This document shows positions 22,114 to 40,845 of a stretch of DNA of 64,000 bases, in pieces. The DNA is taken from NCBI GenBank assembly GCA_001630475.1, contig KV419438.1, forward strand, positions 65,187-129,186. The letters are read 5' to 3'. Made by a program: the position numbers and the translations under genes. Position 1 is the stretch's first letter. Each line of letters opens with the position of its first letter. The notes under the pieces were generated by a model. It had not been told where the DNA came from and did no database searches. It was given only the letters and a program-made list of their open reading frames with translations. This DNA is from Sistotremastrum niveocremeum HHB9708 (taxonomy: Eukaryota; Basidiomycota; Agaricomycetes; Sistotremastrales; Sistotremastraceae).

Positions 22114-23857
22114 ATGGCCAGCGACAGCCACCTCGCAAGAACTATCACAACGTACGAATGTTTCCAAGAACTACGTCAAGCCGTCGAAGACATCGACGAC
22201 AACCCTTCGTTCCTCACAGGAACATGGAATATTCCCAAGTCAAAACTTGCTCTATGGTACAAGAGAGGAGATGCGGCGAGGTGAGAGGACCATTCTTTCA
22301 AACACGAAGAAGTGCCACCTGAAACATTTGCATTCAGTTACATTAAATTTCCGCCCTCGCATGAGGAGGACTTGAAACATCTTTCGAAAGCCTGCCTTAC
22401 CGAGGCTAATGGAGTCGGGAGGCTCGCAGCATCAGATTTCTGCATCGACCTCGGCTTGAGCTTCCCACAACTCCTCGGTCAAAGTGCAAGAAATTTACTC
22501 GGGATGGAACGCGAAGACCGGAAAATTCGAGCCGAATTATTTGAAGTGAATTTTCTTGGTATCGCACATTCGATAACTTCTCAGAGATTACCGTCTTGAC
22601 GTCTCTTCTCAGGACCCAATGCCTCATTCAAAGCACCCGAAAGCATTCCAGCTGTCGATGATAGATTCGGGACCCTGATTTTAGTACTTCCGACCGAACA
22701 TCAAGGTGGCACCCTGATCGTCAGAGATACCAAAGGCGAATACAAGTTCGAATCTTCGCATATGCCTCAATCTGCAAGTTCCAAAGGAGAACCGTACGAG
22801 GTGACGACGGTCGCTTGGGTCGCGTTCCATAATCATTTGGAACACGAGGTGATGCCAGTCGTTTCTGGAGTCCGAGTTACGTTGACATTCGTGAGTTACC
22901 CTGCATCCCCTTTCTTCGAAATTATTCACAATGGCGCGTACGAAGAATCTTCATTTCTCCGATTCGCCTGTGCTCCCGAATAACACCACGATTACAGCAG
23001 AAGCGCCAGATTTCCTACTTAAATTGAAAGCACGTCTTGATGATCCTTCCTTCTTGCCGTTGGGCGGCCGCCTTGGCTTCGGACTCAAATACAAATACTC
23101 ATTCTCCGCGGAGTCAAAGCTTAAAAGCTTGATCACCTCGTTGAAAGGCGCAGACGGTGCTGTTGTCAAGACATTGAACCATCTTGGCTTGAAAACCTCG
23201 CTCGTATCGCATTACGACCTGGAAGAATTGTTGGAAGATCCAGAAGGCGAATGGGGACCGCCTGAGCAGCCTCCCGACGAGTGGAAACGATACTTCATCA
23301 GTGACACGATCATTAGTATGGGCGAATTGGGATCTACTCAACTTCATGACGAGTTCGACTACCCCGAATGTATCCGAGACTCGCGGGACACCAAAACGGT
23401 CCTCAATCGAGGGTTCGTTTATGTTCGCAGTGAGTTGCTGTACTTTCTCGTTGTCTTTTCCATCATTACTCACGTTCTACATAAAATAGACAATGAAGAT
23501 TCGACGACAAAACGCACTGACACTGAAGAAGTCAAGGTTACGACTCAGTTCGATAACTTTGTCTGTGACCTCGGGACGAAAATTGTGAAGAAAGTTCTCG
23601 AGCGGGAGACGGTCACAAAGAACCGCGAAACGGGCAAGAAAACCTCCACTGTGGATGAGCAAACTGTCGTTCAAGAAACGGAGAAAGCCGCGGGCACCAC
23701 AGGATCTAAGGCGAAGCCCAACATGCCGGTGATCAACTGGATCTCGCCCAATCTGGATACGAACGTGGTTCAAACTTATCTCAAAGAGTTAAATGCCTCC
23801 ATTGTGCTATTGGGAGAGGTCCCGCCGTACGAAAAGAGACGTGTCGATAAAGCTTAA
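22114..23857 (+). CDS. 2OG-Fe(II) oxygenase-like protein, copy 1
   Basis: First of four paralogs. ATG 22114 (MASDSHLARTITTYECFQEL), five to six exons, about 490 residues. The double-stranded beta-helix core reads FGTLILVLPTEHQGG, WVAFHNHLEHEV, then VVSGVRVTLTF and NLHFSDSP. In fungal relatives the stretch before FGTL is HxDTP, giving the first two iron ligands. Here the aligned residues are Pro and Ser (FKAPESIPAVDDRFG). The distal His (EHEV) and the 2OG-contacting Arg (SGVR) are kept. The N-terminal third (GTWNIPKSKLALWYKRGD, then a substrate-binding-like helical region) is shared by all copies. The C-terminal INWISPN segment is more diverged than in the others. It is probably inactive or changed in chemistry (inference). 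Confidence 0.75.
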
Positions 23858-24245
23858 ATTAGCCACTATGGGGCGCGGACGGCTGTTTGTAGGATCGAAG
23901 ACTGCGGCTAAAATCTTGACTACATTGTACGATATGTATACCGAGACGATATTTATAATTGAGCTCACCCTTATTCTTTATCAAGCTGTTCAAACACACT
24001 ATCCTAATTATATACAAGATCGTGACATGTTAGTACTAGTAGCTCACCTCCAGTGCTGTTCGTCCCTCAAAGCTAAGGACGCGGTTTGCGTTGCCACTTC
24101 ATTGCAGATATCTCGGCATTTTCTCAACATTCAGAGGAGAACCTATAGCAGTTTACAAAGGTACAAAGCAATATAATAATTTAACCGGTATGGACAACGG
24201 ACCCTGCGGTGGACACCAGTGCTCTCGAGGGTCAAACCATGCGGC

Positions 24246-26310
24246 TCACGATGATCCCAATGATGACATTCGGATCGATTCTGCATCTGACTCATCGCTT
24301 TTCCGTGAATCGAGCCCTTTGTCTTTTTCGGTAGTCAAATCAATCTTGGACGCAGCTCCGCCCCAGAACTCCAGACTGTCCTGCCTCACGGGCAAGTCAA
24401 ATACGGTGTCAGATGCCGCTGGTAAAGATATCAGTCTCAAGTGTATGTTAACGAGGAAGAGGTGCCGAGGTACATACCGGTTGAGAGAGAAAGTACGGGA
24501 GCCGATCCATGAATCCTTTGCGAGCGGTTGAAGAACTCAAGTGTTCCGGGGACTGTGCTATGCTGAGGCTTGGCTATTCCGACCGACCGTATGTTCAAGA
24601 TGAGGCGGGATCCCTAAATCTCATTCGTCAAACATCTGCTTCGGTATAATCGAGATATCACTAACAGAGTAGGCGTACACGGATACAAGCCAACTGTCAG
24701 ATTTGGCTTAGCAAACCAGTAAAAGATCTGAGGGAAGCACAGCGGGACTTACGGGTAGGCCAGAGTCACAATCTCGCTATGCTGATAGACGATAGTCATG
24801 ACCGCACATACTACGCTGATGCCTGAGTAGACAAGACAATAAGCAGGGAGCCTTTGGAGGGGGTGGAGAGGAATTACGCACTGAACAGTCTAATGAAGAG
24901 TGTCAGCCGAAATCTATTCTGAAGTGATTCGAGTGACTTACAAAGCGAAGAAAAGAGCACCATCGCGAATGAACATCGTCAACATCGGCCCAAGACTGCT
25001 CTTGATCTGACGGGAGGTCAACCTGAAGACACCCGTAGTGGTAGACTGAGAGTGTTGTTCCCGCAGGGTTTGATACAGCTTGATGACTGTCAATACGAAG
25101 AATCCGACTGTACGGAAAGTCCTGTCAGGATGGAGTTTGTGGTAAGCGGAAGTATGTGCTCTTACATCCGACGGAGAAGTTGGGGACCCTTCAATCACCG
25201 TTGAGTTTGTCTGTCAGAATCCTGTAGGAAATAAACGTACCATGCGATCAAAGCTCTATTCGTCACGCCGTTGGAGATCAGGCACCCAGGAATGAAAGGC
25301 AAGGGTCTTGGGATGACATCGTTGAGGAGTGCTTGGCTCAATGTAACATAGAGCTCGGTCTAATACACGTAAGATGAGACCCTTCGAAAATGCAGAAGCG
25401 CTCACGCCGAATTCGACTGCAATACGTGGAAAAGTGAAAAGAGCAAACGTTTGAAACTCCGCAATTACTTACGTAAAACTAGTCCTATCAGCAGTGTAAG
25501 GACTGGGGGGAGGGCGTTAGCCAACGGAAGATAATGCATTTTGTAGAACCGAGGCTTACTTCGTTTGCTACGGTTGTACAACGCATGGATTCGCAGAACG
25601 AAGATCACGTTGACGGTAGTTGTGAAGACCACAAAGCCGGAACTAGGAAAACGATCAATATTCGTGATGCAAATGCCATGCCGGCGATACGCACAATGTG
25701 TAGAACCAAAGCCAGAATTTGCAGCTACAGCAAAGTTCGAGTCAGATGATGGGTCGAATTATTAGTGGGGACTCTGGCACGTACAACTGAGAAGAGGATG
25801 AGTCATCGTGTCAAACCGAGCGGTGCAAAATTGCTTACATCCACCCCAACGGTAACACTGTTGTTTACTATAGCGCTTGAGATTTCGATTGCGGATATTG
25901 AGACCATCGTGCTCACCACCAAGTTCGAATCTGAAGGAAGCCGGTCAGACCACTTTTGGGTAATGTGGATTAAATCTCACCCCAATTGGAAAATACCCCA
26001 ATATCGCGCAAAGATATACAGGACTTTGGGGAACGACCACTTCGCTCTTTGTAGTGCGTGAGCACATATAAAAGATGGGCTCCGCATCGAGAAAGCTTAC
26101 CTCCATATGTATTCGATCTCGCTGGGCAAATGACAGACCGTGTCGTATACGAGCCATGCCAAAGCGCTCGCTTAATAAAGGGTATCAGCAGAAGTTGTTG
26201 GATGAAAGCAAACAATACCGACCTATACTGTAGTTTACAGCGCGGAATTGATCGAGCGTTGTAAGGAGCTCCTGCCACTCTTGTTGAACAGTCAATCCGG
26301 TGTTAGACAT
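24246..26310 (-). CDS. DUF6533-domain seven-helix membrane protein
   Basis: ATG 26310 begins MSNTGLTVQQEWQELLTTLD. The DUF6533 signature follows over two exons: SALAWLVYDTVCHLPSEIEY (family A--L-YD-LL-L--EI--IW), then the W-------LY---RY segment. Later exons encode further hydrophobic helices and the typical end of the helical bundle, FFVLTVIKLYQTLREQ and TMFIRDGALFFAL (family lvrDG-lYF). The tail exon is hydrophilic and Ser/Asp-rich, ending at the stop at 24246. Nine or more short exons make this hard to assemble exactly. DUF6533 proteins are a large basidiomycete family of unknown function with a GPCR-like layout. It is convergent with oxygenase copy 1. Confidence 0.65.
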
Positions 26311-27716
26311 CTTGCGATCGACAGGGAAGGTATGGCAATGCGCAGGGACGCTCAGGAAGAGAGAACTGATCAGCGATCACGAAGACTGCTTTTGGTTTTA
26401 TCGCTGCGTCCTGTAAGCCCCAGACCTCCATCACCGTAAATTTCGTCGGGTTCGATGGGGAGCGCTTGATGGAACGGGGTGGCCTATCTGGGTAAATTGT
26501 GACTGAGGGCCAATCATACTGCTGCTAGAGATCAATCGATCAGGCGTGATAGACCAGCGTGGAGCACGGGCTGGAAGTGGACTGTCGACCTCAAGACCAA
26601 GATCAATCTGCTATCTCGCTTACAGAAGTTAGACCCGATCAATATCCCAAAAAGGAAGTCGTAGTTAGGAACCAGCACAGCCACCCCCTGGATTCTTAGA
26701 TGACTATTGCGTGTGTGTGAGGATCAAAGTCGACGAGTTATGTGATTGGTTATCGAACCCCGATGTAGATCAAGAAATCATGTTGCCGAGGATTTACGGG
26801 ATCCCAAAGGTCGGCGTCGCTCTCATGACCAGTTCGCCGATGATCGATGCGATCTCTGGAACTGCTGCACGCTGATTTTCCGGATGAATTGGTTGATGGG
26901 AGCGGAGAGACTGATTTCTGGACCCACGTCGCATGTCATTGCGTCAGCGTCGAGGTACGTAAGAAGGAATCCATTCTTCACGGCTACGGAACATGCGTCG
27001 GGTGTCGGGGGCTGGGGTTGCGACATCATCGGCTTCGGGAGATACTAAACGCTCTGAGAGGTATGAGGTTCAGTGAACGTTTTTGACTTCGAATATATCT
27101 ACACACCTTGAATGATATTGATCAGACTCGGCCAATTCATGGCCTCATGGGACGCAGCGGGCTTACGAAAGTTCAAGTTGCGTCCCTGAACACATCAATG
27201 AAGCATAGATTGGATGAGAGGTAAAGCATTTAACCTGTCCTCACTAGCAGATGATCATCATAAATCGTATGCGAACGCCTCGTTGGTGCGTCAGTCGTCA
27301 GAGCTGCTCAGTGCTCAAGCCAACGACGCCTGGCGGAGTTCGAAACTGTGATGTGATGGTTTGACTGATTGATCCGGCCCGGCCCGGGCGCCGTCGGAAG
27401 CATTTTGCGGCAGCTTTTCCGGCTTGATAATGTCAAGCGCCGGTGCCCGTTCGGTGTCTGGGTTAGGCTTACGCTGCCCGACCGAACCAGGATCGATATT
27501 CTCCTACGACCTGGACAGTTCCCAATATGGCTAAGAAGGCATTTGGTCCAGAAAATCTCCAGGAAAAGGGCAACTCGTACGACGAGTCAGCAGCTCGGAA
27601 AACTTGAGCAGGTGGCGCAACCGATCCCGGATTTGGCAGAAAGGGACACAAGAGCGCCTCGTTTTGTTCTTTTCTTTCTTCTCTAACGCACGTCCAACTC
27701 TTTGAACTCGAAGGCC
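26311..27716. other. 1.4-kb stretch without a recognisable gene
   Basis: Open frames exist (for example 26746-27048 plus and 27369-27686 plus) but show no splice-linked extension or family motif. A GC-rich GGCCCGGCCCGGGCGCC tract lies near 27377. The segment 27615-27649 resembles a stretch upstream of the second MYND gene and is probably promoter sequence of the first. Confidence 0.5.
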
Positions 27717-29731
27717 ATGGGGTCGTCACTGTCGGTTTGCTTAGTCCTTACCGCCTCAATCGCCTCCTTTTTCATGTTCAAGTACTTCGAATCCCAAAAA
27801 TCCGAGCAGTTTTTCCTATCGCGGTCACAAAGCAGTCAATTGGACTTCCATCCCCAGAATCAGTCAGAGCCCAACAATCGAAAGGCCAAAACGACCTCGA
27901 GTCGAGGTCATCGTCGCTTCGTCAAACTCGAACCAGGTGATGATGGGTCTGACTTGGATCCCGTTTTTCGCCAAGGTAGGCACCCCATCGACGTACACAA
28001 TCGCACACACATGTAACTCAAATGTCGCACGCAGATATGACCAAGTTCAAACCAATCAAGAACCATCTGGGAGAAGCTACCCTCTGGGGGCTTCGAGAGT
28101 ATGACAGGTCTGGACATCCTGTCTTCGATTTGGAGGGGGCTGGGCGGCGGCGGGTTAGTAGTCGAAACGCCTCATGGACATCGCTCTCATGCATCCTACT
28201 CTAGATGCTCCATCAATCGTGCTACTACAGTCGTGGAGCTGAGATCCCGGAATCTCAATTTGTCAAATACTTGATGGCAAAAAAGGTACAAATTTCGCCA
28301 GACATATCTTCCTTGACGCTCAGAGACTTTAACGACAGAAATCTCAACTAGAGAAGCTGGATGTGACCGCGCTAAAGAAGCGAGATTATGTCATCAACTT
28401 GACACTTCCGTGAGTCCCTCTTACCAATTCTCGACGAATTTCTCGTCGTCGCAACGACCTGACACTGCGCCGCACAAGATGGATCCCCTTAGAACCTATG
28501 TCCTCGGACGCACATGATAGATACTACGAGGACGGGGACGTCGAACCACACCTGATCACTCGAAAGTTCAAAGTTTCTGGAGGAATCAACCTCGACACAT
28601 TGCAAGACAAGATACTCCAGCCAATTATGGGATGGTGAGACACACCTCTCCCAGTGACACCATGCTGAACTCATGCTGATGCTTTTCACAGGGAGCGTAA
28701 CAGCCATGCATGGATATTCACGGATCTGAAAGACGGGGCTTGTTTCGGTCCGAAAGTGAGTGCGAATGCATTGTTCAGGAACGAGTATATCTGACGCTCA
28801 TTTTTGTATTTCAGGGTTGCAGTGCAACCGACATCATGCACTTGCCTATGCTGTGTTACGAGTTCCTCTATGCCGAAGAATACACACTTGCCCATCTCGC
28901 GCAGAAAGAAGGAGAAAGAATCGAATATCGCTACGACCTCGGAGACAATTGGGGTCATAATCTCAAGGTACGCGAGATATCATCTATGGACTAGGAAAGC
29001 ATTTTGATAAGTTCGTCAAGATTGAGAAGATCTTATCGGAGCAAGAGTCCGACGGAGCTGTTGTGCTTGTTGAAGGTCATGGAATGTGTCCTCCCGAGAA
29101 TGGAGGAGGCAATGGGTGCGTTCCGGCCATCATAGCTGATAACGCATTTACATCTAATTACAGTGTGTGGGCCGACGATGTCTATAAACTGAGCTATGGA
29201 ACTCGCCACGAGAAGTCTGAAGTTCGACACAAACTATCCGGCGCTCGCAACGTCGATCTTCCACCGGGAGCTATTGACCCAAAGTACTTCTCTGTCGACG
29301 AAGCGAATAAACGTCTCCGAGATGCCCTTCGCTCTCATTCTTCTCTTCGGGATGGTGCGAGGACGAATTATATCTTCCCTGGTGTTCCGAGCCCAGATCT
29401 TCTACGATTGATAAATCCTCCTCGACGTGGGGCGATCATAAACCGAACGATAGAGGCAGCGTCTGGCAGCTCGGCGATAGGATTAACTGAAGAGGTTGTC
29501 AGTCATCGGAGGGATAAGAATGCAAAAGCATTATGCGCGGTGTGCGGAAAGGCACAGGGGCTGAAGGCGTGCGCTAAGTGTAGGAAGGTTTGGTATTGTG
29601 GATCCCAACATCAGCTGTATGTGCCCTTTCTTTGACATTGCCTTTGAGAAGTTGACGTGCGCGCGAATTCTAGCGATGATTGGCAGGAGCACCGAAGACA
29701 TTGTCAGTGTCCCAAACCGCGCGTTCACTAA
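27717..29731 (+). CDS. pRiA4b ORF3-like domain + MYND finger protein, copy 1
   Basis: ATG 27717. Residues 1-26 form a hydrophobic N-terminal segment (SVCLVLTASIASFFMF), a possible signal anchor. After FVKLEPGDDGSDLD and NHLGEATLWGLREYD the pRiA4b ORF3-like domain follows: VSGGINLDTLQDKILQPIMG, then W...HAWIFTD, then GERIEYRYDLGDNWGHNL, and GHGMCPPENGGGNG (family Y-YDFGD-W-H and PPED-GG). The C-terminus is a MYND zinc finger: CAVC, CAKC, YCGSQHQ, then DDWQEHRRHC. The domain was first described from a bacterial plasmid/IS passenger gene and is of unknown function. MYND fingers bind proline-rich peptides. About eight introns of 50-60 nt. A paralog lies 3.6 kb downstream on the same strand. Confidence 0.8.
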
Positions 29732-30109
29732 CATTCTCCCTTTGGGATCTCCTCAATCTAACGTGTCGGTGTAAGCTTGTGTACCAGTAGTACCACCGGT
29801 CCAAAAATTCGTTATAAGTCCAATTTGTTAAAATGTGATCAATTTCTTGTCAGAATTAACTTGTATATTCTGTATCTCTAGTCTCATCATCGGTTCAAAT
29901 AACATTACGATGCTTAAGCAGTCGTCTGGGCGCAAGAATGTGGTCCACTAGTGGAGGTAGCTAGCGCCAACAGTGTGACTGACTGTGACTGGACAACTTG
30001 AAACTGAGGCAGTTTTCTCCCGAATCGACGTCCTTGGGCCTCATGCCTCATAATCGAGCCTTTCAGGATTAATATTGATAAACAACTTTGAACCTTTGCA
30101 CTGGTGAGT
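29732..30109. other. Intergenic 3' flank of MYND gene copy 1
   Basis: No gene recognised. The region ends at the 11-bp target duplication of the transposable element that follows. Confidence 0.45.
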
Positions 30110-30120
30110 GCATGCACCCC

Positions 30121-31107
30121 ATTCTCCTTCCCAGAGGCTCCCGCTGCTTGGGCCGCGGTCAATCACAGTACGGTAGAATAGAGAACAACGTAATTTCAAT
30201 GTCGTGATAATGTTCGGAGATAAAAATGATAAATCCGTNNNNNNNNNNNNNNNNNNNNNNNNNNNNNNNNNNNNNNNNNNNNNNNNNNNNNNNNNNNNNN
30301 NNNNNNNNNNNNNNNNNNNNNNNNNNNNNNNNNNNNNNNNNNNNNNNNNNNNNNNNNNNNNNNNNNNNNNNNNNNNNNNNNNNNNNNNNNNNNNNNNNNN
30401 NNNNNNNNNNNNNNNNNNNNNNNNNNNNNNNNNNNNNNNNNNNNNNNNNNNNNNNNNNNNNNNNNNNNNNNNNNNNNNNNNNNNNNNNNNNNNNNNNNNN
30501 NNNNNNNNNNNNNNNNNNNNNNNNNNNNNNNNNNNNNNNNNNNNNNNNNNNNNNNNNNNNNNNNNNNNNNNNNNNNNNNNNNNNNNNNNNNNNNNNNNNN
30601 NNNNNNNNNNNNNNNNNNNNNNNNNNNNNNNNNNNNNNNNNNNNNNNNNNNNNNNNNNNNNNNNNNNNNNNNNNNNNNNNNNNNNNNNNNNNNNNNNNNN
30701 NNNNNNNNNNNNNNNNNNNNNNNNNNNNNNNNNNNNNNNNNNNNNNNNNNNNNNNNNNNNNNNNNNNNNNNNNNNNNNNNNNNNNNNNNNNNNNNNNNNN
30801 NNNNNNNNNNNNNNNNNNNNNNNNNNNNNNNNNNNNNNNNNNNNNNNNNNNNNATAAAAGAGTCAGTAGGAGCATTTCCCGAGAGCCCATGCAAGGCGGC
30901 GTGACAGGGAAAAGCTGATGTAATCGTCTCGGATCGGAATCGGAGACCATCATGTTCCAGAGGCTCCCGCTGCGCGGTCGCGTCTCCTTACGGATTTATC
31001 ATTTTTATCTCCGAACATTATCACGACATTGAAATTACGTTGTTCTCTATTCTACCGTACTGTGATTGACCGCGGCCCAAGCAGCGGGAGCCTCTGGGAA
31101 GGAGAAT
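30121..31107. mobile_element. DNA element with 118-bp perfect terminal inverted repeats, MULE-like
   Basis: The left arm 30121-30238 and right arm 30990-31107 are reverse complements over all 118 bases that can be compared. The left arm runs into the gap, so the TIRs may be longer. An 11-bp direct repeat GCATGCACCCC flanks the element (30110-30120 and 31108-31118), a target-site duplication. Long TIRs with 9-11-bp duplications fit Mutator-like elements. A 17-bp stretch of the TIR (CAGAGGCTCCCGCTGC core) recurs inside at about 30958. Most of the interior is unsequenced, so it cannot be said whether a transposase is present. At the stated gap size the element would be 987 bp, most likely non-autonomous. 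Confidence 0.8.
30239..30853. other. Assembly gap (615 Ns)
   Basis: A run of N. It lies inside an inverted-repeat element, which is a common cause of short-read assembly failure. The true length is unknown. Confidence 0.99.
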
Positions 31108-31333
31108 GCATGCACCCCTTAGTTCTTGTGTAAAATCTCAACTTTCGGGTTTCAGTGGGCGGCAGTGCTGCGGCACGGCGTAGTGTAGCAACCGATTCCA
31201 AATCTGGAAGAAAGGGGCAAACCAAAAGGGGTCGTCTTGTACAATTGTTTTGCTTCCGCTCTTAAAAGCTGAGAGTTGAGGGGTCAACTCCCTGTCAATC
31301 GATCGCTCCCTGATTCATCTGCAAGTAAAAACT

Positions 31334-33277
31334 ATGGGTACGTATTTCTGACCTCTTTGCTATCTCCTATCCCTCTTATCAGCGTACGCCGTGTCGCGAA
31401 ACGTGAGTTTTTCACATAGCGATATCTTGGTTCCGTGAAACTTCCATACTGAGCTTCGGAATCAAATCCTTCAGATCAAACTTTAGGTCGCTATGTTAAG
31501 CTTCAACCGGGTGATAATGGAGCCGACTTGGACGACGTCTTCCTTCAAGGTGAGTCAATATCATCCAGTGCACCGAAGTCGAGGAATCAGAGACCCCACC
31601 CAGATATGAATAAATTCGTTCCGGCCAAGAACTCGCTCGGCGAAGCTCATCTTTGGGGGCTTCGGAAGTATGATGCCTCAGGATTTCCTGAGTTCGAACT
31701 TGAGCGGGGTTACCAGCGGATGGTTCGTGATGAATATGCCTTCAATCGCATCGCACTTACACTCTCTTAGATGGTCAATCAGATCCTCTACCACAGCTAT
31801 GGAGTTCGGGTTCCAGAGAAGCAATTTGTTGATCATCTAATGGCGAAAAAGGTACTGTCGTAAGTTGTGCACCCTTCGACTTCAACTGACTTACGAAAGA
31901 AATCAAAACTGGAGAAGTTGGACGTGACCTCATTGAAGAAACGAGATTATGTCATCAGTCTGTCCTTTCCGTGAGTTCCTTGTACCAATCTGCGATGCCA
32001 AGCCCGAGATGACATTATACATCTCAAGCTGGATTCCCTTATCCCCCATGTCTTCGGACGCCCACGACGAACATTTCAAAAACGGCGATGTTGAGCCGCA
32101 CCTTATCACTCGCAAATTCAAGGTCTCTGGAGGCATCAACCTCGATACATTGCAGGACAAGATACTCCAGCCAATCATTGGATGGTGCGTTACTTCATTG
32201 AATAAAGATAAGGGTAATTGATCTTTTCTGCAGGGAACGCAATGCTCACGCTTGGCTCTTCACGGATTTGCGAGACGGGGCTTGCTTCGGACCAAAAGTG
32301 AATGCGACTGTGATTGTTCTGCAATGTTCTCTTTTTCTGATTCACCTCAGCACAGGGTTGTAGCGCTCAGGATATCATGCACGTCGGGATGCTGTGCTAC
32401 GACTTCCTCAAAGCGGATGACTACACACTCGCTCATCTTTGCCAGAAGGAAGGAGAAAGAATTGAATATCGATACGACCTGGGAGATAATTGGCTTCAGA
32501 ACCTCAAGGTTGGTGACGTCATACCAACAACGGAGCAAAGTCGGATAACATCTTCCGTAGGTCGAAAAGATATTATCGGAAGAAGAATCCGACGGAGCTG
32601 CGGTGCTGATCGAGGGTCATGGAATGTGCCCTCCCGAAAACGGAGGAGGCAACAGGTACGCCCTGTCCATGCTAATTGAGAACACTTCTGCAACCTATCG
32701 CAGTGTATGGTCTGGGGATATCTACAGACTGATTCACGGCACCCAAGACGAGAAGAAAAAGATTCGACTAAAACTGGCCAATGCTAGGAATATCACGGCA
32801 CCGTCTGGTTCAATCGATCCCAAGCACTTTTCTCTCGAGGAAGCAAAAGAGCGTCTCCGAGCTGCACTTCATTCTCATTCTTCTCTTCGCGATGGAGCCA
32901 GGACAAATTATATCTTCCCCGGTGCACCGACTCAAGATATTCTACACATGATCAATCCTCCCCGACGTGGTGCGGCCGTGAATCGGACAATTGTTCCCGG
33001 CTGTGAGCATACCCTGACGGGGGTTACTCAAGAAGTTATCAGCGATCGAAGGGACAAAAATGCCAAAGCATTGTGTGCTGTCTGTGGGAAAGCTCAAGAT
33101 CTGAAGGTGTGTAGTAAATGCAAGAATGTTTGGTATTGCGGAGTCCAACATCAACAGTATGTGCCCTTTTTCGTCGTCGATCTTGAGCATTCTTTGAAGA
33201 GCATTTTCGCTGTCTATAGCGATGATTGGCAGGAGCACCGGAAGAACTGTCGCCGCCCCAAACCTCGCGCTACATAG
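31334..33277 (+). CDS. pRiA4b ORF3-like domain + MYND finger protein, copy 2
   Basis: The probable start is ATG 31334, which gives only ATGG before a GTACGT donor. The next exon resumes RYVKLQPGDNGADLD, so the hydrophobic N-terminal segment of copy 1 is missing. The rest aligns exon by exon: NSLGEAHLWGLRKYD, VSGGINLDTLQDKILQPIIG, ERNAHAWLFTDLRDGACFGP, GERIEYRYDLGDNWLQNL, GHGMCPPENGGGNR, then the MYND finger CAVC, CSKC, YCGVQHQ, DDWQEHRKNC. In the YDLGDNW-H motif the His of copy 1 (GHNL) is Gln here (LQNL). The protein would be soluble, unlike copy 1. It is separated from copy 1 by the inverted-repeat element. Function unknown. Confidence 0.8.
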
Positions 33278-34016
33278 TATCCTGTTTGAAGAAACCCTTC
33301 TTGACTCGTCATGCGAAAGCCGTATCTTGAACACCAACCTCACGACCTTGAAATTTGTTTTTGAGACTCTGTCAGCAATTATACCGTCTTCATCTCGTTC
33401 AATGTGATGTAGGACTTCTCTATCCTTCTTGTAGCTCTAGTATTGTCTTTTCTGAATCTGTTGATCTTGGTCCTGCCAGTAGTCGGCAATGGGACCCATG
33501 TGTAAATGTGTAAAATATGATACTGATCGCTTGTAATGAAATCGTTCCTGTGTATCCTGCGCACAAGATTCGATCGCGAGTTTTTTTCAACGAAAGTCAA
33601 ACAGCCTCATGATGCAATTTATCCCATAAAGAAAACACTTCCATGTTTTTTTTAGCCGGCCGCGGTGCACGTTAGCAAGGTGACTTAGAAGCCCAAATCC
33701 AACTCCCACATCAAGAAATTAGTCTCAGACGTGGCGCTCGGGGTTACTATGTTTTGACGTGTCTGAGAACTCGTGGGTGCAACTTTCTTGGTCCGTCAAA
33801 GCATGAATTTTTCAGAAAATTCTAACAATACTCACAGACCCACCCAGTGAACTAATTCAACTGGGTCTGTCAGTGAAACAATAGGAACGACACCGGGACT
33901 TGCACCAGAATCGGCTGCTGAGCTTCGAATGACATGGTCGTAGACCTGTCGGAGTTTATCCTTTATTACGAAACTGTTCAACTTGCAACTGTCACCACCA
34001 CTCAGTCCACACCACC
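33278..34016. other. Intergenic, includes promoter of oxygenase copy 2
   Basis: No gene recognised. The last 150 bp share several blocks with the 180 bp upstream of oxygenase copy 3 (AATAGGAACGA, then GCAGCTGAG/GCTGCTGAG, and CTGTCGGAGTT), so the promoter was duplicated with the gene. Confidence 0.5.
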
Positions 34017-35788
34017 ATGAAATCCAAAGAACATCTGCTGAAGACGATAACGTCTTCGACCAAATTTGAGGAGCTACGCCTAGCAATGGAAGCCACCAAG
34101 GAGACCCCGGTTTTTGTAGAAGGGACGTGGAACTTCAACTCAGAGTTTGTTTTGTGGTATAAGGATGGGGAAACCTCCAAGTAAGTTTCTTCGTTTTCTT
34201 CGCCCCAGACTGTTCTCACTATATTGCTGCGCAGAAAGATCACTTTTCCAAACTTCGATGAGGTGGAACTGAAGCGTCTGTCGGATGCATGTCAGCCAGC
34301 CACTCGTGGCATCACTTCTTTTCGGAAGCTGGACAATCAAGACTTCACCATAAACACCGGCTACACCCTCTACGAAATGATCAGTCATGGAGTCAGACGT
34401 CTACTTGGGGTTCCATATGAGGGGAAAAATTTCACCGCTGAGTTGGACCAGCTTCAAGTCTATGGTATTGAGTCATCCCGCCCTCTTGTCGCACCTGAGC
34501 TGGAATTTATTAGGCCCAGGATCTTTCCGGGAGCAAAATCCTAACGCTTTGACGAATGCGGACGCATTTGGTACATTCGTCTTGGTTCTGCCAACCGAAC
34601 GGAAGGGTGGAGATGTTCTACTTTGTGCCAGTGAAGGGGTTCAAGGAGACGTCTTGCGAGCACCGGAATCAGTCCAAGTTCCAGACTCTCATGGTTCGGT
34701 CTCATTGGTCTCATGGGCAGCCTTCTGGAAAGGAGCGAACCATGAAGTTAAACCAGTCAGCGTCGGCTACCAAGTAGTATTGACATTCGTGAGCTTCCGC
34801 AGTATTACTGTTTCTCTACTTTGACATTCTTCCTAGAACCTGTCTTTCTCAGACTCGCCACCGCCCATCATCGCATCGAGAGTGGCACCAGAAGCACCAG
34901 CTCTCTTCGACGCGCTGAGGAACTCCTTGGCTGATCCTACATTTCTGCCTCTCGGCGGCTTTCTAGGTTTCGGTCTTAAGCACAAATACGCTTTCACCAA
35001 GGACTCCGAATTGCAAGACTTCAGAACTCATCTCAAAGGATGTGACGGCTCCATCGTCAATGTAGGAGATTCGTTCGGGCTGAAGTTAAGTCTCCGCGCA
35101 TTTTACGACGCCGGAGATTATGGATGTGGCAAGGCGAGTGAGAAAAGATGGCTCATGACGGAGAAAATCTTGTGTCTCGGAGACTGTGAAGGAATTCCGG
35201 AGGACATGATTGCAGAGTGTTTGGAGAACTTCGGAGACATGGAGGCTGATATCATCATGGAGCCAGACCCCACCGTCAACTTCGTCGTCCATCGTGGTTT
35301 CTTCCGTTCAGAAGGTGTGTTAAGCAGCGACTTCCTACGAACAACGACCCTTCTGAATCTGAGCCACAGTGAGATCCTGGAGGGGCGACAATCCAAGCGT
35401 CTTGAAGATTGTCGAACTCTGTGATGTTGGAACAGCTGTGCACAAAAAGGTTTTGGAGCCCGAGAGCAAGGAATGCCAAGGGGATGAGGGTGATTTCTCT
35501 CAAGTGGTATCTTCCAGCGACGCATCCAATCAAGCTGTTTATCGGGCAAGCCCTCGGGAGCCCTTCGATGAGGCCCTTGTTATCAACTGGGTTGCTCCAA
35601 TGAACAGGAGTAATCCCATTGGTTTTCCACTGGATCACTCTCATCGTCCGGGAGTCATGGGCCATCCATTTGGATCAATCAATCTCATTCTGGAGATTCC
35701 TCCTCTAGAAAGCCGACAGAGACAGATTCAGAATGCTTCCGGAGACCAGGGGTTGGCCGATTTGAACGGCACTCAGAGCAATGTCTAG
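34017..35788 (+). CDS. 2OG-Fe(II) oxygenase-like protein, copy 2 (probable pseudoenzyme)
   Basis: ATG 34017 (MKSKEHLLKTITSSTKFEEL), about 500 residues with the family's intron positions. The core is FGTFVLVLPTERKGG, WAAFWKGANHEV, then SVGYQVVLTF and NLSFSDSPP. At the HxD columns of copy 4 it has Asn and Asn (FREQNPNALTNADAFG). The HxGG His of the other copies is Arg (ERKGG). The distal His remains (NHEV), but the 2OG-binding Arg is Gln (GYQV). With both first iron ligands and the Arg gone, normal Fe/2OG chemistry is unlikely (inference). The frame is nevertheless open through the C-terminal VINWVAPMNRSNPIG and HPFGSINLILEIP region. Closest relative is copy 3, 2.6 kb downstream on the same strand. 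Confidence 0.75.
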
Positions 35789-36116
35789 AGCGTGAGCTGG
35801 AGTGAAGGCTTGGACCTGGGTTGCCACTGCTATATGAACAAAGTTGCACAATCTATTAGTGAGATCCGGGATATGTATCAGACGGCAAGAAAATGTGTCC
35901 AATTTGTGTAGAGTCTCAGCACTTTTACGTTGCCAAGAGTACATATATGACTGTATGTCTAGAAAAACGAGATCTCCCCGAGATTCCGAGTTCTAGAAGA
36001 CACATTCTCGGATCGGCTTCCTGAAAACTCCGAGCATAGAGTCTTCTCGACCGGGACGTGAGTTATTGTTGTCCCAATTTCGGCGTAGAAAGCAAGAATT
36101 ATGTCCGAGCATCTGA
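35789..36116. other. Intergenic 3' flank of oxygenase copy 2
   Basis: No gene or RNA recognised before the target duplication of the next element. Confidence 0.4.
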
Positions 36117-36124
36117 GGAGGTGG

Positions 36125-36424
36125 TAAGGCATCCAACGAATATAGGCCAAATGAGTACACTCGCGAGTATACTCGCGTGAGTACTCGCCTAGGGTTAGGC
36201 ACATGAGTACTCGAGTATTGGATTTTGGGAAAAAACAGTGGAAAATGAGTACTCATACTCGAGTACTCGTGGTTTTTACTAGTAATACTCGCGAGTACTC
36301 GAGTATGAGTACCCATTTTTTGCTGTTTTTTGGTCCGCGAGTGTTTTGCTCAGCCTCCAAAAAAACGCGAGTACTCATGCGCGAGTACTCGAGTACCGCG
36401 AGTATGTATTCGTTGGATGCCTTA
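36125..36424. mobile_element. 300-bp hAT-type MITE packed with GAGTACTC palindromes
   Basis: Terminal inverted repeats of about 18 bp (TAAGGCATCCAACGAATA at both ends) and an 8-bp flanking duplication GGAGGTGG (36117-36124 and 36425-36432) fit a hAT-superfamily miniature element. If the TIR is taken to begin one base later, the duplication reads as 10 bp. The interior carries seven exact GAGTACTC palindromes plus many one-base variants (GAGTATAC, GAGTACCG). No coding capacity. hAT transposases are known to bind short subterminal repeats, which may explain the motif (inference). It lies upstream of oxygenase copy 3, about 200 bp before its ATG. Confidence 0.75.
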
Positions 36425-36627
36425 GGAGGTGGTGTCCCTCGTCCATCAACTGAGCTGGGTAGAGTTCATTGACCAATCCTACCGGAACCGGGACAATAGG
36501 AACGAGTCACACTGAAAATTCAACATCGGCAGCTGAGTTTGAAACGATATGGTAATAAGGCTGTCGGAGTTCATCTTGATTATTACTCAACTCTCAACCA
36601 TCTTCACCACTCATTTCACCAGACGCG

Positions 36628-38497
36628 ATGGAATCCAACAAGCATCTCGATAAAACTATCACGTCGTTTTCGCTCTTAGAAGAGCTACGATCGGCAGCCC
36701 AGGCCACAAAAGAGACCCCCGTTTTCGTCAAAGGAACCTGGGACCAGCCCAAGTCGCAGTTTATTCTGTGCTATAAGGACGGGGAAACTTACAAGTGCGC
36801 CTCTCCGTTCACTCTTTCGCCAATGTCCCAGTTACAGATATCTCATAGCAAAATCACATTCCCTAACTTCGACGAGGTTGAGCTGAAGCGTCTGTCGGAT
36901 GCGTGTCAGCCAGCCACTCACAGTGACAGCGGTTTGCGAACGCTGGACAGCCAGGAACTCTCGATCAATCTGGGCTACGATCTGTATGATTTGATCAATC
37001 ATGCAGTCAGGAGGCTACTTGGGGTTCCGTACGAGGCGAAAAATTTCACTGCTGAGTTGGACCGGCTCCAAGTCTATGGTATTGAATGGTTATACTATAC
37101 TCCTGTTGCGTGTGTTCTGATATATCTCAGGTCCAGGATCTTTCCTCGAATCCCAATCTCACGTGTCCACCACGGCCGATGCAATCGGTACTTTCGTCCT
37201 GGTTCTGCCTACCGAACATCAAGGCGGAGATATCCTTGTCCGCGAGGGAAGTGAGGAGCACTGCTTCGAAGCGGCCCAATCGAATGGAAAAACCCCGGAC
37301 TGCAACGTCTCATCGGTCTCGTGGGCAGCGTTCTGGAAACAAGCGAACTATGAAGTCAAACCAATCAGCGCCGGCTACAAAGTAGTATTGACATTCGTGA
37401 GTTCGTCCCATGATGCTTTTTTCCCTTCGGAAGTGACGTTTTCCCTAGACTTTGTCTTTCTCAGACTTGCCGCCTTCCATTATCGCGTCTAGAGTGGCAC
37501 CGGAGTCCCCTACTTTCCTAGGAGCGCTTAAAAGTTCGCTGGCTGATTCTACATTCCTACCGCTCGGAGGCCTCTTGGGTCTCGGTCTGAAACACCAATA
37601 TGCTTTCAACCAGTCAAAGTTGGAAACCTTCAGGTCTCATCTCAAAGGTTTCGATAGCTCTATCGTCAAGGCCGCAGATTTGCTCGGCTTGAACTCGAGC
37701 GTGCAGATATTCTACGACGCTTCGGTTTACGGAATCAAAAAGACGAGCCAAAAACGGTGGATGATGACTGAGACAATCATGGTATTTGGGGACTGTGATG
37801 GCTGGATGGAGGAAAACATGGGTGAAGGGGCCTTCCCCGAGAAACCCGATGACAAGACAAAATTCATAATCAATCGCGGGTTTTCACAGAAAACAAGTGA
37901 GATGAATCTTACATGTAAACTGAGTCTCCTAACCCCTGGTTTACAGTACGTCCATGGTATAAGAACGTCACCACCAAGATTGAACTTTGCGACATTGGGA
38001 CAGATGTGCAAAGGAAGATCCTTGAGCAAAAAATCAAGAAGTGGACTAAGGAAGGGAAGAGTTTCACTCAAGCCGTTGATCCTCTCAACTTCTCCGAAAA
38101 ACCCTTGAAAAGATTTGATATCACCAACGCTTCTCACCGTGATAACCACCCTGAAGCGCTTGTCATCAATTGGATCACTCCCATGCGCAAGGAAAATACA
38201 GTTGGCCAAACATTTATGCGGGGCTATCGTCCTGGGATGATGACTCATCCTTTTGGATGGGTAAATCTTGTCATCGAAATACCTTCGTATGAGCGCCGGA
38301 AAGCAGGCCGTTCTCCCCATGCTTTCGACGCTGACCCCACTTCGTCCCCTACCAGCATTATTCCAGCCCCAGTCAAGGTCTCTAGCAGTGATGTGAACGC
38401 TGCGCCTACGTTCACAGATGGTAACGAAGAGGCGATGGAGGATTATGAATATTTCGACGGGGCCTCTGATACTGATGAGCAATCATCTGATGAGTAG
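36628..38497 (+). CDS. 2OG-Fe(II) oxygenase-like protein, copy 3 (probable pseudoenzyme)
   Basis: ATG 36628 (MESNKHLDKTITSFSLLEEL), about 510 residues. The N-terminal module resembles copy 2 closely (ITFPNFDEVELKRLSDACQ in both). The core is IGTFVLVLPTEHQGG, WAAFWKQANYEV, then SAGYKVVLTF. The HxD columns of copy 4 hold Gln and His (FLESQSHVSTTADAIG). The distal iron-ligand His is Tyr (NYEV) and the Arg is Lys (GYKV). All four catalytic positions are therefore changed, the most decayed active site of the array. The C-terminal KIELCDIGTDV, VINWITPMRKENTVG and HPFGWVNLVIEIP segments are well kept, and an acidic tail (EEAMEDYEYFDGASDTDEQS) is unique to this copy. Confidence 0.75.
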
Positions 38498-38548
38498 GCA
38501 GGCCGAGCTCGCATGTTGATTAGTAGCCTGTAGCCATCGCTTTGTGGT

Positions 38549-38926
38549 CTAGCGGAAGAATCGTCCACCTTTGTCACGCCATCCATCTACCCAGTCCTTT
38601 TGATACACATTAAAATCTCCCGCAGTAGTATGTCTATGCCGCCAGTATCCTTTAGCTAGTCCGAGTTCAATCTTCACGTTTGATTCAAATTGTTCGGAAA
38701 ATTTGGGGATTCGGGTCCCAATATAGCGCAGACATTCCACATCGAACATAAGATATAATTTATTCGCGCTGTGGGAGTTGTCTCCCTTTGACAATGTCTG
38801 ACGAACGGCTCTCGAGCCGGCATCTTGAAAAGAAGCCGGCAGCAAGGTTGAGGCCATAGTAAGTTCGAACTCCGACAGCCTTCTTCCTGTCTTCTTCGAA
38901 TCTTCCTGCTTTTCAAGAGCATTCAC
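38549..38926 (-). CDS. Possible small protein, 125 aa, unknown
   Basis: A single-exon frame from ATG 38926 to a stop at 38549, head to head with oxygenase copy 4 (39 bp between start codons). It reads like a folded protein: a helical start (ALEKQEDSKKTGRRLSEFEL) and an aromatic, charged end (KGYWRHRHTTAGDFNVYQK, then WVDGWRDKGGRFFR). I recognise no family. It may be real or the remains of a longer gene. Nothing else in the gap between copies 3 and 4 explains it. Confidence 0.35.
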   Translation of the reverse strand: MNALEKQEDSKKTGRRLSEFELTMASTLLPASFQDAGSRAVRQTLSKGDNSHSANKLYLMFDVECLRYIGTRIPKFSEQFESNVKIELGLAKGYWRHRHTTAGDFNVYQKDWVDGWRDKGGRFFR

Positions 38927-38965
38927 AATAACACGGACTTGACACTACGTCTCTTTGCCTCTGCC

Positions 38966-40845
38966 ATGACAACAGACCAGCATTTGAATAAGACCATCAC
39001 CTCTCTTTCGCATCTTCATCGCTTGCGTGCCGCAGTCGACGATATCAAAGACTCCCCGATTCTTACCAAAGGAACATGGAATTTCCCAAAAAATAATCTT
39101 ATTTTATGGTATAGAGATAAAGACGAATATCGGTGTGTCTACAGTATAAATCATTCGATGAGACTCACGAGTCTGAAATGGCCTCATCTAGGCGCATTGA
39201 ATTTCCTACCTCGGATGTCGTTGAACTTGAACGTCTTTCATCAGCTTGTCAGCCTGCTACGTTCGGGAACAACAAAGACCATGTCTTGGATGAAAACTAT
39301 CGACGGGCACGGAAGATGGACGTTGAAGACTTTGCCATCAACATGGGCTTCAATTTCACGGACTTCCTCAACCACGCAGTGAGGCGTTTACTGGGAGCGC
39401 CACATGATGACAAGAACTTCCGCGCGGAACTGTACAAGCTTAACGTCTACGGTCCTTCTTCCGTCTCTTATATAATCCCTAAAACTAACTAATTGATGTT
39501 GACTAGGCCCTGGTTCCTTCTTTAAACCACATCGAGACACTCCGCGAGCTGATGATATGTTCGGGTCCCTCATTGTTGCCTTACCCACTAAACACGAAGG
39601 TGGATCTTTGATCCTTCGCGATGAGAAGAACGAGCTCGTATTTGAATCGTCTCAAAAGTGTACATCGTCCGAATCAGGACTATACTCTGTCCCATGGGCG
39701 GCGTTTTGGAGCCAAATTGAACATGAGGTGGCTCCAGTCATCAGCGGTTACCGGGTTACTTTAACGTTTGTAAGCATGTTTTCGTGTTCTTTCTGCACGA
39801 TGTTTTACTTAATCGACAACTTAGAACTTGTATTTTTCTAAAGTTCCGCTTCCCACTTCTGTCCGTGTCTCGAACGTGGTACCGGATGCGTCGCCTCTTT
39901 TCACGATCTTGAAGACTCTTCTCAATGATTCGACTTTTCTTCCACAAGGAGGGCTACTTGGTTTCGGGTTAGAGCACCAATACCCAATGTCAAATACTTC
40001 AAAGCTCCAAAGCCTGATGATGTATCTGAAAGGAACCGACTCGTTCATAGTGATGACGGCCCAAGCTCTGGGGCTCAAAGCATATCTTAGAACAGTGTAT
40101 GACATCGCCGCCAGCGATCAGATTGGGTTCCAAAGCGACGACGAAGGCTATTCTTACAGACCAGGGCCTGTTGAGGAAGTGTGCCAGAGGCGCTGGCTGA
40201 TGAAATGCAAGGTCATGTATCTGGAGTATTTCTATGACTACAACAGCGATCAAGACGATACCTTGGGCGAGTGGATGCGCGAAAGCCTTGAGAAAGGAGA
40301 TACTTTCTTTGTCAATCGAGGTTTCTTGAACCGGAGCGGTCAGTGTTCGAGTCAGCTCTTTCTTTCTTCGGACGGACGCTGATCATGATTCACATCGTTC
40401 AGTGACTTCCAACGACATTCAAGTCACGTTCGGAGATCAGGACGAAGCCAAGACCGTGACTACCGATACCAAAATACACCTTTGTGACCTTGGTACGGTG
40501 TTCAAGAAGCTCGTCGAGCGAAGGATAGACACCGAATACGCCAAAACTGGCCAAAAGACATCTGCCGTGGAATATTCGACTATAGGTGCTGACGATCCGC
40601 AGAATCTCAGTGATAAGGATGGCGATCTGGACCTGACACGGGATTGTGGTTTCCCTCCTCTGCCTGGAGCCGTCGTTGTCAATTGGATTAGACCGATGAA
40701 GCAACAGAATGCAATTGGCACGCCCTACGCTGGGATCTTCGGCAACACCCCTGCTCTTGATCATATCTATGGATGGATCAATCTCATCGTGGAAGTGCCT
40801 TCGTTTGCAGACAGAATTCAAACTCAACCCGTTGCAAGCTCATGA
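38966..40845 (+). CDS. 2OG-Fe(II) oxygenase-like protein, copy 4 (intact active site)
   Basis: ATG 38966 (MTTDQHLNKTITSLSHLHRL), about 520 residues. It is the only copy with the full set: PHRDTPRADDMFGSL provides His and Asp, EHEVAPV the distal His, and SGYRVTLTF the 2OG-binding Arg. The beta-helix core continues LPTKHEGGSLIL, WAAFWSQIEHEV, NLYFSKV. A C-terminal module follows (LCDLGTVFKKLVERR, VVNWIRPMKQQNAIG, IYGWINLIVEVP). The family is the prolyl-4-hydroxylase-type Fe(II)/2OG oxygenase fold common in agaricomycetes. The substrate is unknown. An intron near 40345-40400 separates the FVNRGFLN and TSNDIQVTF segments. It is the right-hand end of the array. Confidence 0.8.

What the first reader, a model, noticed from the sequence alone, without database searches (positions are those of the whole stretch)
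22114..40845. Graded loss of the Fe/2OG active site across four tandem oxygenase-like paralogs
Aligned by eye at fixed spacing, only copy 4 (38966-40845) has His and Asp in the PHRDTPRADDMFG block, the distal His (EHEV) and the 2OG Arg (SGYR). Copy 1 has Pro and Ser at the HxD columns but keeps the distal His and Arg. Copy 2 has Asn and Asn plus Arg-to-Gln. Copy 3 has Gln and His, distal His-to-Tyr and Arg-to-Lys. All four frames are open with conserved intron positions and intact C-terminal modules (VINWI-P-M, HPFGW-NL--EIP). That is hard to explain by simple pseudogene decay and suggests selection for a non-catalytic role, perhaps as partners or decoys of copy 4.
Basis: partly seen in the sequence, partly recalled or inferred. 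Interest (0 to 1): 0.75.

Follow-up and report, generated by a model that had tools for sequence, protein, structure and literature searches.

The report
Dead oxygenase copies kept by selection
In a fungal genome, several copies in two families of iron-dependent oxygenase genes have lost the iron-binding site yet still look protected by natural selection, so they probably work as proteins without being enzymes.

Summary
Four tandem five-exon genes are open. At HxD / distal His / 2OG-Arg, copy 4 reads H-D/H/R, copy 1 P-S/H/R, copy 2 N-N/H/Q and copy 3 Q-H/Y/K.

The window cuts the array. Four more copies downstream keep the site, so 3 of 8 have lost it. A related family repeats the pattern: of 18 places found, 9 keep all four ligands, 8 have lost some, 1 lacks the core.

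Copies 1-3 also deleted 10-13 residues of a segment conserved in bacterial relatives.

Sisters 2 and 3 both lack HxD, share the deletion and diverged under purifying selection: omega 0.25 at dS 1.4, omega=1 rejected (2dlnL 109). Neutral drift would have given about 18-19 stops. Relaxation is seen in exons 1-3, not exons 4-5.

So these are most likely maintained pseudo-oxygenases, not decaying pseudogenes. 'Graded' is not the right picture; partner or decoy is untested. No expression data or usable structure was obtained, and no collection of other fungal genomes was on hand.

The parts
22114..23857 (+). Copy 1: 5 exons 22114-22280, 22338-22558, 22613-22890, 22946-23429, 23490-23857; 505 aa; HxD His column Pro (22636-22638), Asp column Ser (22642-22644); distal His (22843-22845) and Arg (22873-22875) kept; 13-residue deletion in exon 2
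   Evidence: model; alignment; codon positions counted by hand
34017..35788 (+). Copy 2: 5 exons 34017-34180, 34235-34464, 34514-34788, 34837-35314, 35370-35788; 521 aa; HxD columns Asn (34537-34539) and Asn (34543-34545); distal His kept (34741-34743); Arg column Gln (34771-34773); 10-residue deletion in exon 2
   Evidence: codon positions counted by hand
36628..38497 (+). Copy 3, sister of copy 2: 5 exons 36628-36794, 36849-37078, 37131-37396, 37449-37896, 37947-38497; 553 aa; HxD columns Gln (37154-37156) and His (37160-37162); distal His column Tyr (37349-37351); Arg column Lys (37379-37381); 10-residue deletion at the same place as in copy 2
   Evidence: codon positions counted by hand
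38966..40845 (+). Copy 4: 5 exons 38966-39132, 39192-39451, 39507-39769, 39825-40338, 40403-40845; 548 aa; intact site His 39530-39532, Asp 39536-39538, distal His 39722-39724, Arg 39752-39754; exon 3 frame above the PF13640 cut-off
   Evidence: codon positions counted by hand
39262..39318 (+). Segment FGNNKDHVLDENYRRARKM of copy 4, the counterpart of bacterial [FY]GRGxxTLVDTxVRxTW; 10-13 residues of it are deleted in copies 1-3

Best explanation
The locus is part of an eight-copy tandem array of PF13640-type Fe(II)/2-oxoglutarate oxygenases with a conserved C-terminal module.

Shown by sequence: copies 1-3 have lost the HxD pair (copies 2-3 also the 2OG Arg, copy 3 also the distal His) and a conserved segment before the core, while most of the rest of the protein and the splicing pattern stay conserved. 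Copies 2 and 3 diverged from each other under purifying selection.

Inferred: copies 1-3 cannot bind iron and 2OG in the family's way, so they are not oxygenases. They persist because the folded barrel plus the C-terminal module does a non-catalytic job. The most likely job is binding the family's partner or substrate, so that each dead copy reads, scaffolds or competes for what the active paralogs modify. Which of these it is, is not shown.
For: Ligand loss. The four bacterial relatives that I aligned, of 22 plasmid records matched, keep all four ligands and the exon-2 segment. Loss is concentrated at the presumed active site: of 42 positions invariant in 5 intact fungal + 4 bacterial proteins, copies 1/2/3 keep 2/2/1 of the 7 in the two blocks but 29/31/29 of the other 35 (Fisher p 0.0085, 0.0026, 0.0011).

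Selection after loss: copy 2 v 3 omega 0.253, dS 1.39, 2dlnL 109; exons 1-2 0.17, exon 3 0.36, exons 4-5 0.19. In eight-copy branch models omega=1 on the 2 and 3 tips is rejected (2dlnL 115.9); exon 3 omega is 0.098 on intact branches v 0.356 on dead ones (2dlnL 13.8); exons 4-5 show no difference (2dlnL 0.04). Introns 2-4 of copies 2/3 are at shuffled level while exons are 68-80% identical. A neutral model without indels at dS 0.56/0.79 gave a mean of 17.6/19.3 stops, 0 of 500 runs stop-free.

Repetition: in the C27/C16/C56 family 8 of 18 places lost ligands, with the core exon open; in a 17-copy model their branches have omega 0.156 v 0.138 for intact ones, and omega=1 is rejected (2dlnL 357.6).
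Against: No expression data, no orthologues from another fungus, no usable structure. dS is saturated for copy 1 and the 2+3 stem in the whole-gene model (dS 4.7 and 69) and in most of the C27 pairs tested, so omegas there are rough. For copy 1 the loss could be late on a long constrained branch. omega=1 on the 2+3 stem is rejected for the whole gene (2dlnL 18.3, on a saturated branch) but not in exons 1-2 (0.07), exon 3 (0.56) or exons 4-5 (1.01) taken singly. Copy 1 has lost the HPFGW stretch of the C-terminal module. A single loss per family is not rejected (p-AU 0.18, 0.26, 0.31).
Confidence: 0.72

Rival explanations
1. The losses are recent and independent in each copy, so the low omega only records constraint from before the loss.
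For: The branch of copy 1 is long, and its loss cannot be dated. In the second family the dead copies have long tip branches (dS 1.2-2.7) on which a late loss could hide.
Against: Copies 2 and 3 both differ at His, Asp and Arg and share a deletion of the same length and place, which points to loss in their common ancestor, before dS of about 1.4 accumulated. In the second family L064+L087 (92.9/96) and L073+L074+L088 (92.9/91) are clades made only of dead copies.
Confidence: 0.13
2. Ordinary pseudogenes under neutral decay that happen to be open.
For: Duplicate arrays often decay (general knowledge). One intact-site copy (copy 7) has an in-frame TGA and one C27 place lacks the core, so decay does occur in these families.
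Against: omega=1 rejected for the 2/3 pair; 0 of 500 neutral runs stop-free at those distances; a GT-AG intron can be placed at all 12 positions of copies 1-3 (models built on that rule); third positions are the least identical in 9 of 10 full 50-codon blocks of 2 v 3, tied with first positions in the other.
Confidence: 0.06
3. New enzymes: copies 1-3 use other residues for metal or another chemistry.
For: Residues that could bind metal occur nearby, such as His in the Asp column of copy 3; no structure rules this out.
Against: The replacements differ in every copy (P-S, N-N, Q-H), whereas a new shared site should converge. The exon-2 segment is also gone.
Confidence: 0.06
4. Dead copies serve only as donors for gene conversion or as a sequence reservoir, not as proteins.
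For: Tandem arrangement; third-position identity of 2 v 3 varies from 0.30 to 0.66 over full 50-codon blocks.
Against: A pure reservoir has no need of open frames, splice sites and low omega.
Confidence: 0.03

Closest known systems
PF13640 2OG-FeII_Oxy_3 / prolyl-4-hydroxylase-like oxygenases
   Same: The exon 3 frame of copy 4 and full-length copy 8 score above the Pfam cut-off; HxD, distal His and Arg at His+10
   Different: Copies 1-3 lack defining ligands; 2 and 3 are not reported by the model
Bacterial 2OG-Fe(II) oxygenases of about 750-800 aa (Microvirga, Thiodictyon, Streptomyces, Bradyrhizobium plasmids)
   Same: 39-46% identity over the core in the 20 listed of 22 records; in the four aligned, the same segment before the core and a shared LxHxY...LKGxD stretch after it
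   Different: Longer C-terminal part; all four aligned keep the active site; annotated only as 2OG-Fe(II) oxygenase
Epe1, fission yeast JmjC protein (PMC7192584, passages seen)
   Same: A putative 2OG demethylase with a natural His-to-Tyr change in its iron triad and a non-enzymatic function, partly carried by its C-terminal part
   Different: Different subfamily (JmjC), one gene, not an array; JARID2 is named there as a further example
Ssd1/Dis3L2 pseudonucleases (PMC8097288, abstract and outline seen)
   Same: Active-site loss at least four times in fungi, with other parts of the protein conserved
   Different: Unrelated enzyme class; losses in separate lineages rather than among array neighbours
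TET/JBP expansions in basidiomycetes (PMC8889193 and PMC12730594, passages seen)
   Same: Lineage-specific expansion of 2OG oxygenases in mushrooms
   Different: Different subfamily, often linked to transposons; the word 'inactive' has 0 occurrences in the main text of either paper

Membership tests
PF13640 2OG-FeII_Oxy_3 (as a homologous family) | Profile score above the curated cut-off | tested here: inconclusive
   Exon 3 frame of copy 4: 32 bits v 27 (met); copy 1: 24.8 (not met); copies 2 and 3: no PF13640 row (not met). Homology of 1-3 to copy 4 over the full length is clear.
Functional Fe(II)/2OG oxygenase | HxD...H triad and 2OG Arg | tested here: not met
   Copies 1-3 lack HxD, 2-3 lack Arg, 3 lacks the distal His; met for copies 4-8 and the four bacterial relatives aligned
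Pseudoenzyme | Homologous to an enzyme, catalytic residues lost | tested here: met
   Sequence homology and ligand loss; the fold itself was not confirmed, and that the intact copies are active enzymes is inferred
Pseudoenzyme | Protein maintained by selection | tested here: met
   Copies 2 and 3: omega 0.25, 2dlnL 109. For copy 1 omega=1 is rejected too (2dlnL 35.5 whole gene, 4.9 exon 3), but dS is saturated in the whole-gene model
Pseudoenzyme | Protein made, with a non-catalytic function | not testable with these tools
   No expression or functional data
Pseudogene | Stops, frameshifts or broken splice sites; omega near 1 | tested here: not met
   for copies 1-3; copy 7, outside the window, has one in-frame TGA
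Partner or decoy of copy 4 | Physical or genetic interaction with the active paralogue | not testable with these tools
   None available

The most novel reading that the evidence does not exclude
The fungus keeps a standing repertoire of dead 2OG oxygenases: 11 of 25 core-bearing paralogues in two families have lost ligands. They act beside active paralogues as binders, competitors or subunits, so that array composition tunes one modification pathway or recognition system.
Probability: 0.25. Interest if true: 0.75.

Novelty: new variant of a known kind. Interest (0 to 1): 0.55.

Why it matters
Pseudoenzymes are a known theme. Here, in one genome, two families of one oxygenase superfamily hold apparently active and dead copies side by side. 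In the array whose eight genes I modelled, a segment conserved in bacterial relatives is deleted along with the ligands, and two sister dead copies still diverge under purifying selection. That makes a natural series for asking what a 2OG oxygenase fold does without chemistry, and it warns that automatic annotation as '2OG-Fe(II) oxygenase' may over-call enzymes in fungi.

Tried and rejected
Structure: AlphaFold of exon 3 (four window copies, mean pLDDT 43.4) and of the copy 1 C-terminal open frame (36.6) were too poor to superpose metal sites, so I ran no fold search.

PDB sequence searches gave no relative: one search had 0 matches; the 16 matches (E 0.34 or worse) are antibody chains, ribosomal L24 and one adenomatous polyposis coli protein.

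Relatives: degenerate-pattern scans of genome contigs and viral contigs confirmed nothing. Phages: no match. Plasmids gave bacterial relatives. PF13640 as a whole-genome query rang at 2 places, copy 4 and a place on C3 (31.6 bits, over the cut-off). The C3 place did not appear in the protein searches, so I take it for another branch of PF13640 and left it out; my script did not find its frame. C5 (L076) came up weakly with copies 1, 3 and 4 (E about 0.001-0.002) but not with the C27 query; I could not read its HxD and left it out of the counts.

Independent losses within a family: I expected the data to force more than one loss in C45; the AU tests do not reject one, so I claim only one per family.

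'Relaxation everywhere in the dead copies' rejected: exons 4-5 show none, nor does the C27 core exon. The 14-copy C27 run is superseded by the 17-copy run.

NCBIfam gave only weak matches below cut-off for two bacterial relatives and none for copy 8.

Literature: I found no report of such arrays in what I saw. Searches returned no paper. Searches (10 of 10 listed; 12 of 14; 8 of 10; 6 of 6; 10 of 42) returned listings of which I looked into four papers. The library holds open-licence papers only, so this is weak.
Full report
WHAT IS THERE. The window is 64 kb of contig C45 (65187-129186) of a 34.7-Mb assembly in 111 contigs. Short spliced introns and the gene content point to a fungus, probably a mushroom relative (my inference). 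I rebuilt the four genes by hand from the DNA. Each has five exons with GT-AG introns of 48-64 bases at matching places and no internal stop.

THE ARRAY IS LARGER THAN THE WINDOW. Protein searches of the whole genome showed four more copies downstream. Their models all keep H-D/H/R. So 5 of 8 copies keep the ligands and 3 of 8 have lost some. One of the five, copy 7, has an in-frame TGA at codon 48, so the one copy with a plain nonsense codon is one with a good active site.

A SECOND FAMILY DOES THE SAME. A query with the core of one intact member (L070) found 18 places of a more distant family: 16 on C27, one each on C16 and C56 (a lower bound by the tool's own statement). HxD lies on a tiny exon there, which I read by eye from the DNA. 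Nine keep all four ligands (L035, L062, L066, L068-L072, L075). Eight have lost some, written as HxD His and Asp columns / distal / Arg: L064 D-S/Y/Q; L065 D-T/H/R; L067 D-S/L/R; L073 K-D/L/L; L074 H-R/Q/Q; L087 P-S/R/Q; L088 N-D/V/Q; L089 S-Q/H/R (distal and Arg columns). In L064 and L089 the tiny exon differs in length from the intact one, so their HxD columns are less certain. One place, L090, lacks the core. In all eight the core exon is open (stop-to-stop frames of 265-352 codons). So 11 of 25 core-bearing copies in the two families have lost ligands. I did not model the whole genes of the second family. Two further places, on C3 (PF13640 31.6 bits) and C5 (weak matches), were left out as other branches.

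A MISSED FEATURE. Four bacterial relatives from plasmids (Microvirga, Thiodictyon, Streptomyces, Bradyrhizobium; 4 aligned of 22 records matched) keep the ligands and a segment before the core, [FY]GRGxxTLVDTxVRxTW (with small variations), that corresponds to fungal FGRNxxDVLDESYRLARKM. Copies 1, 2 and 3 have deleted 13, 10 and 10 residues there; the deletion is at the same place in 2 and 3. In the C27 family the segment is shortened or rewritten in all eight dead copies; by my gap-free reading by eye, against the one intact copy whose segment I read (L086/L070), the Asp is lost in 8 of 8 and the Arg in 5 of 8. That this segment lines the substrate and 2OG pocket is recalled from prolyl-4-hydroxylases, not shown here.

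WHERE CHANGE FELL. Of 156 positions invariant in the five intact fungal copies, 22 lie in the exon-2 segment and the HxD block. Copies 1/2/3 keep 4/5/3 of these 22 and 100/97/96 of the other 134 (Fisher p 6e-7, 1e-5, 3e-7). With the bacteria added, they keep 2/2/1 of 7 and 29/31/29 of 35 (p 0.0085, 0.0026, 0.0011). The two blocks were chosen after seeing the alignment, so the p-values describe the contrast and are not a blind test.

SELECTION. I wrote a codon likelihood program. Copies 2 and 3 form a 100/100 clade, and both lack HxD and share the deletion, so their divergence probably all happened after the loss. Their omega is 0.253 (dN 0.35, dS 1.39), and omega=1 is worse by 2dlnL 109. By part: exons 1-2 0.17, exon 3 0.36, exons 4-5 0.19, omega=1 rejected in each (47.7, 11.1, 64.6). 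In the eight-copy model, exon 3 has omega 0.098 on intact and 0.356 on dead branches (2dlnL 13.8), exons 1-2 have 0.089 v 0.212 (8.7), exons 4-5 show no difference (0.04), and the whole gene gives 0.124 v 0.203 (6.1). So constraint was relaxed in exons 1-3, not abolished, and not measurably relaxed in exons 4-5. In the C27 family the core-exon omega is 0.156 for dead and 0.138 for intact branches (2dlnL 0.45, 17 copies), with omega=1 on dead branches rejected (357.6): no relaxation is seen there.

LIMITS OF THE SELECTION TESTS. dS is saturated for copy 1 and the stem of 2+3 in the whole-gene model (4.7 and 69) and in most C27 pairs tested. omega=1 on the 2+3 stem is rejected for the whole gene (18.3) but not in exons 1-2, exon 3 or exons 4-5 taken singly (0.07, 0.56, 1.01). 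My program is a simple one-rate-across-sites model. Copies 2 and 3 are tandem neighbours, and third-position identity varies along the gene (0.30-0.66 in full 50-codon blocks), so some gene conversion is possible.

INDEPENDENT CHECKS. Introns 2-4 of copies 2 and 3 are no more alike than shuffled sequence, intron 1 somewhat more (0.72 v 0.60, sd 0.07), while exons are 68-80% identical; 300 bases upstream of the start codons are also at shuffled level (0.63 v 0.62). A neutral simulation (substitutions only) at the tip distances gave 17.6 and 19.3 stops on average and no stop-free gene in 500 runs each; at dS 0.1, 3 of 500 (copy 3) and 5 of 500 (copy 1) stayed open; at dS 0.05, 25 of 500 (copy 3). 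So a very recent loss cannot be excluded by open frames alone.

HOW MANY LOSSES. At least one per family. Within C45 the best tree separates copy 1 from 2+3, but a single loss is not rejected (p-AU 0.18 with bacteria, 0.26 without); in C27 likewise (p-AU 0.33 with 14 copies; 0.31 with 17). Either reading suits maintenance: many losses mean a recurrent outcome, and one loss means an old dead lineage that kept duplicating and stayed open.

HOW IT MAY WORK. Shown: ligand loss, segment loss, conserved remainder, purifying selection on 2 and 3. Inferred: no Fe/2OG chemistry in 1-3; a binding or scaffolding job. The closest worked examples that I saw are Epe1, with His-to-Tyr in its iron triad and a non-enzymatic function (PMC7192584, passages), and the fungal Ssd1/Dis3L2 pseudonucleases, where the active site was lost at least four times while other parts stayed conserved (PMC8097288, abstract). 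Whether the dead copies compete with, pair with or ignore the active ones is open; there is no expression evidence, and that the intact copies are active is itself inferred from their ligands.

VERDICT. Real, and stronger than the finding says because ligand loss repeats in a second family; less tidy than 'graded loss' suggests. A new variant of the known theme of pseudoenzymes from duplicated enzymes.

Noticed in passing
C45:143566-145420 (copy 7, outside the window; L009, L012, L027): A copy with all four ligands carries an in-frame TGA at codon 48, where six of the other seven copies have Trp and copy 3 has Cys.
   Followed up: partly
window 28332-29635 and 31893-33277: A tandem pair of MYND-finger genes with a PRiA4_ORF3 match below cut-off sits between oxygenase copies 1 and 2 (blocks 69-79% identical); a long run of N lies between them at about 30236-30857.
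   Followed up: no
L090 (C27:374600-376400): A member of the second family with an upstream NPCRNIK-type stretch and the C-terminal part, but no catalytic core that I could read in between.
   Followed up: partly
window 59599-63729, minus strand: An NPHP3_N/NACHT frame followed by a long WD40 frame, like fungal NLR-type genes (recalled).
   Followed up: no
window 36150-36410: A stretch rich in GAGTACTCGCGAGTACTCGAGTA-like repeats and inversions between copies 2 and 3 (the tandem finder reports only a 3-copy 12-mer).
   Followed up: partly
L077, L078, L079, L080: Bacterial plasmid relatives of this oxygenase family, annotated only as 2OG-Fe(II) oxygenase, share an unnamed stretch LxHxY...LKGxD after the core with the fungal genes.
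   Followed up: partly
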